A DNA stretch of 64,000 nt from Candidatus Methanoplasma termitum. GTDB lineage: Archaea; Thermoplasmatota; Thermoplasmata; Methanomassiliicoccales; Methanomethylophilaceae. Positions 58,692 through 59,779 of this stretch are shown here, piece after piece. The stretch is from contig NZ_CP010070.1 of the NCBI RefSeq assembly GCF_000800805.1, positions 496,001 to 560,000 of the forward strand. Reading direction: 5' to 3'. How positions within the stretch are numbered: the first letter of the stretch is position 1; the number at the start of each line of letters is the position of its first letter. The position numbers were made by a program, and so were the translations under genes. The notes under the pieces are model-generated. The model searched no databases and was not told the origin of the DNA. It saw only the letters and a list, made by a program, of their open reading frames with translations.

Positions 58692-58755
58692 TGCCCCCTT
58701 ACCTTAATGTCACGTTGAATGCTTCGGCCTTTCCCTTGATCTCTGCGATAAATCT

Positions 58756-58794
58756 TTGTGTGTTCAGAGTAATCTGAAAACTTTGAACACACAA
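58756..58794. repeat. 11-bp inverted repeat upstream of the nucleotidyltransferase
   Basis: TTGTGTGTTCA at 58756-58766 and TGAACACACAA at 58784-58794 are perfect inverted copies with a 17-base gap, between leuS and the next gene. They may form a hairpin or be a regulator site. Confidence 0.6.
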
Positions 58795-58853
58795 GGTTTC
58801 ACCAGAGCCGATATTGCATAATTATTATAGGTTTCCACTTGATACAGTAATAT

Positions 58854-59174
58854 ATGAGCTCCGCAGACACAGGCTGTAATGTCACTCTCGATGAATTAAA
58901 GGAGATAATCGCACCTATCGCCGAAAAATACGACATGATCCGCGTATATTTATTTGGGTCGAGAGCACGCGGGGACTGCAATTAGAAAAGCGATTTTGAT
59001 TTTTGTGTTGTCGCTCCTGAAGGATGCACTCTCTTTGACCTCGGTGGGTTTCTTTATGACTTAAGGGACGCTCTCGGGTCGGAGGTGGATGTTGTCTGCG
59101 AAGAAGGCGTAAAGAGAAGACCACACCTCATGGAGGAAATGCTGCGCGACAGGAAAGTCGTCTTCGAAGCGTGA
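58854..59174 (+). CDS. Minimal nucleotidyltransferase with one in-frame TAG (possible pyrrolysine)
   Basis: 107 codons from ATG to TGA, with TAG at codon 44 (58983-58985). Before it: LDELKEIIAPIAEKYD and YLFGSRARGDCN. After it: KSDFDFCVVAPEG and, later, EVDVVCEEGVKRR and MEEMLRDRKVVFEA. These are the GS and DxD elements of MNT-type nucleotidyltransferases, with the TAG exactly filling one residue between them. A TATA-like TTATTATAG lies about 25 bases upstream of the ATG. It may be read as pyrrolysine or be a nonsense mutant. A HepT-like partner is not seen. Confidence 0.75.
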
Positions 59175-59236
59175 CTTCGAGAAAATAGGGGAAATCTTCA
59201 GTCTGTTGGGTGTTTCTGGATGTGCCCCGAAAGGGT

Positions 59237-59779
59237 TCATTCCCATCTCTTGTATAGGTTATGATCTATCCCGACCCTGTCCAAACATTTCCCAACGACG
59301 AAGTCGACCATATCTTCCACAGACCCAGGCTTGGGATAGAATCCCGGATTGGCATCCATTATCACTACGCCGCACCTTGCAAGTTTCAACTCATTTTCCA
59401 GCATAATCGCACTCTTCGGCGTCTCTCTTACGACCAGAATGACCTTTCTGCCTTCCTTGATGCTGACCGCTACCGCCCTGGATATCAGAGTATCGGATAT
59501 CCCGGATGCGAATTTTGCCACAGAGGACTCGCTGCACGGAGCAACGAACAAACAATCGTAATGGTAAGATCCGGAGGAAATGGAAGCGAATAGATCATCG
59601 TCATCGAAGACCTTGTCAGCCATCGCTTCCGCTTGTTCGACGGACATCCCCATCTCTTCGGGAAGGATCATCTTTGCGGCCTTGGACATCACCAATATCT
59701 TCTCTCCGGGAAGCTCTCGGAGGAGGCGTACCCCATAGATACTGCCCGAGGCGCCTGTGATCGCTACCACCGACCTCAA
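59237..59779 (-). CDS. ubiX: Flavin prenyltransferase UbiX
   Basis: 180 residues. MRSVVAITGASGSIYGVRLLREL at the start and MDANPGFYPKPGSVEDMVDFVVGKCLD at the end are UbiX hallmarks; SGSYHYDCLFVAPCSESSVAKFASG lies in the FMN site. It attaches a prenyl group to FMN to make the cofactor of UbiD-type decarboxylases. It starts 4 bases after the aCPSF1 stop. Confidence 0.96.
   Translation of the reverse strand: MRSVVAITGASGSIYGVRLLRELPGEKILVMSKAAKMILPEEMGMSVEQAEAMADKVFDDDDLFASISSGSYHYDCLFVAPCSESSVAKFASGISDTLISRAVAVSIKEGRKVILVVRETPKSAIMLENELKLARCGVVIMDANPGFYPKPGSVEDMVDFVVGKCLDRVGIDHNLYKRWE

What the first reader, a model, noticed from the sequence alone, without database searches (positions are those of the whole stretch)
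58854..59174. One in-frame amber codon in a minimal nucleotidyltransferase: candidate pyrrolysine protein
The frame runs ATG to TGA over 107 codons, interrupted only by TAG at codon 44. The TAG sits in the loop between GSRARG and the DxD motif and adds exactly one residue to the expected spacing. The gene has a leaderless-type promoter, and no TAG stop was found elsewhere in the window. Known pyrrolysine proteins are mostly methylamine methyltransferases, so a nucleotidyltransferase would be new. A plain nonsense mutation remains possible.
Basis: partly seen in the sequence, partly recalled or inferred. Interest (0 to 1): 0.82.

Follow-up and report, generated by a model that had tools for sequence, protein, structure and literature searches.

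The report
Antitoxin-like gene with in-frame amber codon
A small nucleotide-transferring enzyme gene in a methane-producing archaeon carries one internal UAG codon that this organism can almost certainly read as the rare amino acid pyrrolysine; the gene looks intact on both sides, and it adds one protein to a type of case already predicted many times in this archaeal order.

Summary
In detail: 58854-59174 is one frame with a single TAG at codon 44. It lies in a 1,488,669-bp Methanomassiliicoccales genome, probably Ca. Methanoplasma termitum. The product is a minimal nucleotidyltransferase of the MntA (type VII antitoxin) kind. With the TAG read as a residue, its catalytic motif GSX10DXD has exactly the canonical spacing. 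Homologs align without gaps there, mostly with Glu at the site. All 15 strongly conserved columns after the TAG are kept.

The genome has pylB, pylC, pylD, pylS and a tRNA-Pyl-like gene, and two mtmB genes with in-frame TAG. TAG ends only 9 of 333 sampled ORFs of 150 aa or more, and two of those nine are mtmB. So the TAG most likely acts as a Glu/Lys-to-Pyl substitution at a tolerant site. There is no sign that Pyl has a special role.

The gene is an orphan antitoxin homolog without HepT, in an insert between leuS and a flavoprotein gene found only in this species. A recent nonsense mutation cannot be excluded. Similar Pyl proteins are already predicted in this order. The most interesting relative is in genome G057: an MntA with TAG at the same column, beside an intact HepT toxin gene.

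The parts
58854..59174 (+). MntA-like minimal nucleotidyltransferase gene (106 aa if UAG is a residue), orphan
58983..58985 (+). in-frame TAG, codon 44, predicted pyrrolysine; homologs mostly have GAG/GAA here
58956..59000 (+). catalytic motif GS-X10-DXD (G35 S36 ... D47 F48 D49), with the TAG as one of the ten X residues
   Evidence: sequence; motif definition PMC7641770
59088..59090 (+). third metal-ligand Asp (D79), 30 residues after D49 as D71 is after D41 in S. oneidensis MntA; conserved in 26 of 27 homologs
58692..59236 (.). insert of 545 bp between leuS and the flavoprotein gene, not found in the other genomes of the genus
58751..58799 (.). imperfect palindrome (20-nt arms, 85% complementary) upstream of the gene; a second copy of its core elsewhere in the genome
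55821..58691 (+). upstream neighbour: class I aminoacyl-tRNA synthetase (called leuS here)
59237..59779 (-). downstream convergent neighbour: flavoprotein (UbiX/Pad-like)

Best explanation
The gene encodes an orphan MntA-like nucleotidyltransferase whose codon 44 mutated to UAG, from an ancestral sense codon that was probably Glu or Lys. In this organism tRNA-Pyl reads UAG, so the product is a full-length protein with pyrrolysine in the variable loop between the GS and DXD halves of the active site. Shown: intact frame, conserved sequence after the TAG, exact motif spacing, complete pyl gene set, near-absence of TAG as a stop in the sample, other in-frame TAG genes in the same genome. Inferred: that UAG is actually decoded in this mRNA, that the residue is Pyl, and that the replacement is near-neutral and not functional. 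The cellular target is unknown. By family it would transfer AMP to a HEPN protein; no cognate HepT lies next to it, and the genome's only detected HepT has its own MntA.
For: PylS, PylB, PylC and PylD all exceed their NCBIfam cut-offs. A tRNA with CUA anticodon lies just upstream of pylS. Two mtmB genes carry in-frame TAG in the same cluster. TAG ends 9 of 333 sampled ORFs of 150 aa or more, two of them mtmB, versus 213 TGA and 111 TAA. The closest homolog is 82% identical after the TAG and 61% before it; 15 of 15 conserved columns after the TAG are kept; at most 7 amino acid changes fall on this branch after the TAG against at least 9 silent ones. Position 44 is variable and mostly GAG/GAA in homologs. 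An MntA in genome G057 has TAG at the same column next to an intact HepT, and G057 has pylS. ramA in the window's genome has TAG as codon 2 where its closest relative has AGA.
Against: No proteomic or transcript evidence. The gene is an orphan in a species-specific insert, so its loss could be harmless and a recent nonsense mutation would leave no further trace. No homolog at the same locus exists to date the TAG. Among in-frame stops in the family the TAG excess is weak (4 TAG, 1 TAA, 0 TGA; P about 0.08), and in G031 the TAG copy sits beside a frameshifted HepT.
Confidence: 0.72

Rival explanations
1. A recent nonsense mutation in a dispensable orphan antitoxin gene: the gene is on its way to decay and the TAG is of no consequence.
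For: No HepT partner in the window, a species-specific insert, and a relative (G031) whose TAG copy lies in a decaying pair.
Against: No decay after the TAG. In a cell with tRNA-Pyl a UAG is read anyway, so a UAG mutation is not a plain null mutation.
Confidence: 0.17
2. Sequencing or assembly error at one base (true codon GAG, AAG or CAG).
For: One base separates TAG from the codons homologs use most (GAG, AAG).
Against: Complete single-contig genome. An independent genome shows TAG at the same column, so the state itself is plausible.
Confidence: 0.05
3. Pyl at this site was selected for a function, such as a reactive imine near the ATP site or making the enzyme depend on pyrrolysine supply.
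For: Two MntA proteins of different subfamilies have TAG at the same column inside the catalytic motif, in two genomes with pylS.
Against: The closest homologs of both lack it. The column holds about 2.5% of all one-step TAG opportunities in the family, so a second hit there among three other TAGs has a chance of about 7%. The column is variable and mostly Glu.
Confidence: 0.06

Closest known systems
MntA antitoxin of the HepT/MntA (HEPN/MNT, type VII) toxin-antitoxin system
   Same: NTP_transf_2 fold, GSX10DXD motif, third Asp at the same spacing, about 100-residue minimal form; most homologs found here sit directly before a HepT gene
   Different: No adjacent HepT; one X of the motif is encoded by TAG; scores 42.7 bits against the NCBIfam cut-off of 60
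Predicted non-methyltransferase pyrrolysine proteins of Methanomassiliicoccales (Borrel 2014, PMC4153887; ISO4-H5, PMC5011839)
   Same: In-frame TAG in one species, sense codon in homologs, host with pyl cassette and few TAG stops
   Different: A nucleotidyltransferase/antitoxin homolog does not appear among the 16 proteins of PMC4153887 or in the passages of PMC5011839 read here (full gene list not seen)
MtmB and other methylamine methyltransferases
   Same: UAG read as Pyl in the same genome
   Different: There Pyl is conserved and catalytic; here the site is variable and Pyl occurs in single species

Membership tests
Pyrrolysine-containing protein | Host has pylBCD, pylS and tRNA-Pyl(CUA) | tested here: met
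Pyrrolysine-containing protein | In-frame UAG with homologous, conserved sequence on both sides | tested here: met
Pyrrolysine-containing protein | UAG rarely used as stop in the host | tested here: met
   9 of 333 ORFs of 150 aa or more in a 464-kb sample (31% of the genome), two of the nine being mtmB
Pyrrolysine-containing protein | Pyl found in the protein by mass spectrometry or structure | not testable with these tools
   no proteome data available here
MntA (type VII antitoxin) | NTP_transf_2 domain (PF01909) | tested here: met
   49.1 bits against cut-off 21
MntA (type VII antitoxin) | GSX10DXD motif | tested here: met
   met only if UAG is counted as a residue; motif from PMC7641770
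MntA (type VII antitoxin) | Score above the NCBIfam MntA_antitoxin cut-off | tested here: not met
   42.7 bits against 60; the genome's own paired MntA also falls short at 56.9
MntA (type VII antitoxin) | Adjacent HepT gene with RX4HXY | tested here: not met
   none in the window; the only HepT detected in the genome is at G000:C1:819084-819359 with its own MntA

The most novel reading that the evidence does not exclude
In some Methanomassiliicoccales the antitoxin of a HepT/MntA pair carries pyrrolysine inside its catalytic motif, so the cell must keep reading UAG to restrain the toxin. Such a pair would lock in the 22nd amino acid. G057 (L037) has the intact pair; the window's gene would be an orphan of the same kind.
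Probability: 0.1. Interest if true: 0.75.

Novelty: new member of a known kind. Interest (0 to 1): 0.42.

Why it matters
It is one more well-supported case that UAG behaves as an ordinary sense codon in this archaeal order, so genes there are cut short or missed by standard annotation. The relative in G057 makes a sharper question testable: whether an addictive toxin-antitoxin pair can depend on pyrrolysine translation and so help fix the expanded code.

Tried and rejected
Restart after the TAG: the first in-frame start codon is a GTG close to D79, beyond the DXD motif, so no active protein could result. A PYLIS-like RNA structure after the TAG: z = -1.5, not distinctive. Single-sequence structure prediction: pLDDT 60, and below 50 at residues 35-49, so not used. 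Collection scans of genome contigs and viral contigs gave no relatives. A TAG excess among premature stops in the family: only suggestive. The unrelated inserts at the same junction in G006 and G011 contain no trace of the gene. The paper on an archaeal code with all TAG as Pyl that I recall (Science 2025) is not in the held library and is not used as evidence. ARAGORN does not report the tRNA-Pyl; it was found by eye, and its predicted fold was not distinctive (z = -0.33).

Full report
Observation. The frame 58854-59174 reads ATG to TGA with one TAG at codon 44 (58983-58985), exactly as described. It is a true gene: with TAG read as a residue it matches Pfam NTP_transf_2 (7.4e-13, residues 16-95) and Polbeta. 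It has homologs in 31 of 101 related genomes and in 56 of 147 genomes of the order at a stricter threshold. The window is G000:C1:496001-560000 of a complete 1,488,669-bp contig. Size and GC fit Ca. Methanoplasma termitum (1.49 Mb, 49%, PMC5011839); this identification is an inference.

Decoding machinery. The genome has PylS (270 bits, cut-off 178), PylB (462/348), PylC (334/248) and PylD (203/150) in one cluster. A tRNA with a CUA anticodon loop lies just upstream of pylS (L064, about 9107-9038 on the minus strand; identified by sequence, as ARAGORN does not list it). Two mtmB genes with in-frame TAG stand next to the cluster. In a 464-kb sample (31% of the genome), selected ORFs of 150 aa or more end in TGA 213, TAA 111 and TAG 9 times. 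Two of the nine are mtmB. Three others, with Pfam-supported proteins, have another stop 7-11 codons later. So UAG is a rare stop here and is available as a sense codon.

The site. Counted as a residue, codon 44 gives GS-RARGDCNOKS-DFD, exactly GSX10DXD, the active motif of MntA antitoxins (PMC7641770). The third Asp (D79) lies 30 residues after D49, the same distance as D41 to D71 in the S. oneidensis enzyme. Homologs align without gaps across the site. Their commonest codons there are GAG (14 of 49) and GAA (10), then AAG (3) and CCG (3). Seventeen of the 49 codons are one base away from TAG.

Selection after the TAG. The nearest homolog (L003, G001) is 61% identical before and 82% identical after the TAG. 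Every one of the 15 columns after the TAG that are at least 90% conserved among 27 homologs is kept. dN after the TAG against L003 is 0.12 with dS saturated. On the window's own branch at most 7 amino acid changes (1 resolved, 6 unresolved) stand against at least 9 silent ones. There is no decay. This does not exclude a very recent nonsense mutation, because no homolog at the same locus exists.

Context. In ten other genomes of the genus leuS and the flavoprotein gene are directly adjacent; two others (G006, G011) carry unrelated inserts there. The window's species has a 545-bp insert that holds only this gene and an upstream palindrome. Most homologs lie next to a HepT gene; this one does not. 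The only HepT found in the genome by PF01934 (819084-819359) is paired with another MntA without TAG. The gene is thus an orphan MntA homolog.

Other TAG cases. In the family I saw TAG in four places (window, G057, G031, G032), TAA in one and TGA in none. Given codon make-up, four or more TAG of five has P about 0.08. G057, G031 and G023 have pylS over the cut-off; G032 does not. G031's HepT is frameshifted. In G057 the MntA has TAG at the same column 44, its nearest relatives have GAG there, and the adjacent HepT is intact with an RX4HXY motif (RDIIAHNY). That is the strongest functional argument that such a UAG must be read, though it rests on one draft genome. In the window's own genome ramA begins ATG-TAG-TAT where its closest relative has ATG-AGA-TAC.

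Mechanism. Most likely a sense codon (GAG/AAG type) mutated to TAG in a cell where tRNA-Pyl reads UAG, so the mutation acted as a missense change to Pyl in a tolerant loop and was kept by drift. Borrel et al. proposed this process for M. alvus (PMC4153887). Decoding in this mRNA is inferred, not shown.

Comparison and verdict. As a phenomenon this is known: 16 extra Pyl proteins in M. alvus and 46 amber-containing genes in ISO4-H5. A nucleotidyltransferase is not among the 16 in M. alvus and not named in the passages of the ISO4-H5 paper that I read, so this is a new member of a known kind. The possibility of a pyrrolysine-dependent antitoxin, best seen in G057, is the part worth a test.

Noticed in passing
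L064:11694-13310 (G000:C1:609693 onward): The ramA-like corrinoid activation gene between the two mtmB genes begins ATG-TAG-TAT; the closest relative (G013, 87% over the first 200 aa) has ATG-AGA-TAC. Pyl as residue 2 of a key methanogenesis protein is possible, or initiation at TTG codon 7.
   Followed up: partly
L037:881-1192 and 1182-1529 (G057:C110): MntA gene with in-frame TAG at the same alignment column, overlapping an intact HepT gene with RX4HXY, in a genome with pylS.
   Followed up: partly
window 58751-58799 and G000:C1:267452-267476: A palindrome TTCARAGT-N9-ACTYTGAA occurs without mismatch only twice in the genome, each time upstream of a gene; possible operator of a shared regulator, or a repeat remnant.
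   Followed up: partly
L062:13706-15196: DDE transposase-like ORF with TAG after 394 codons and 101 further open codons; the weak Pfam match continues past the TAG.
   Followed up: partly
window 58692-59236; L091:2041-3111; L100:412-961: The leuS-flavoprotein junction holds different inserts in three species of the genus and none in ten others, so it looks like an insertion-prone site.
   Followed up: partly
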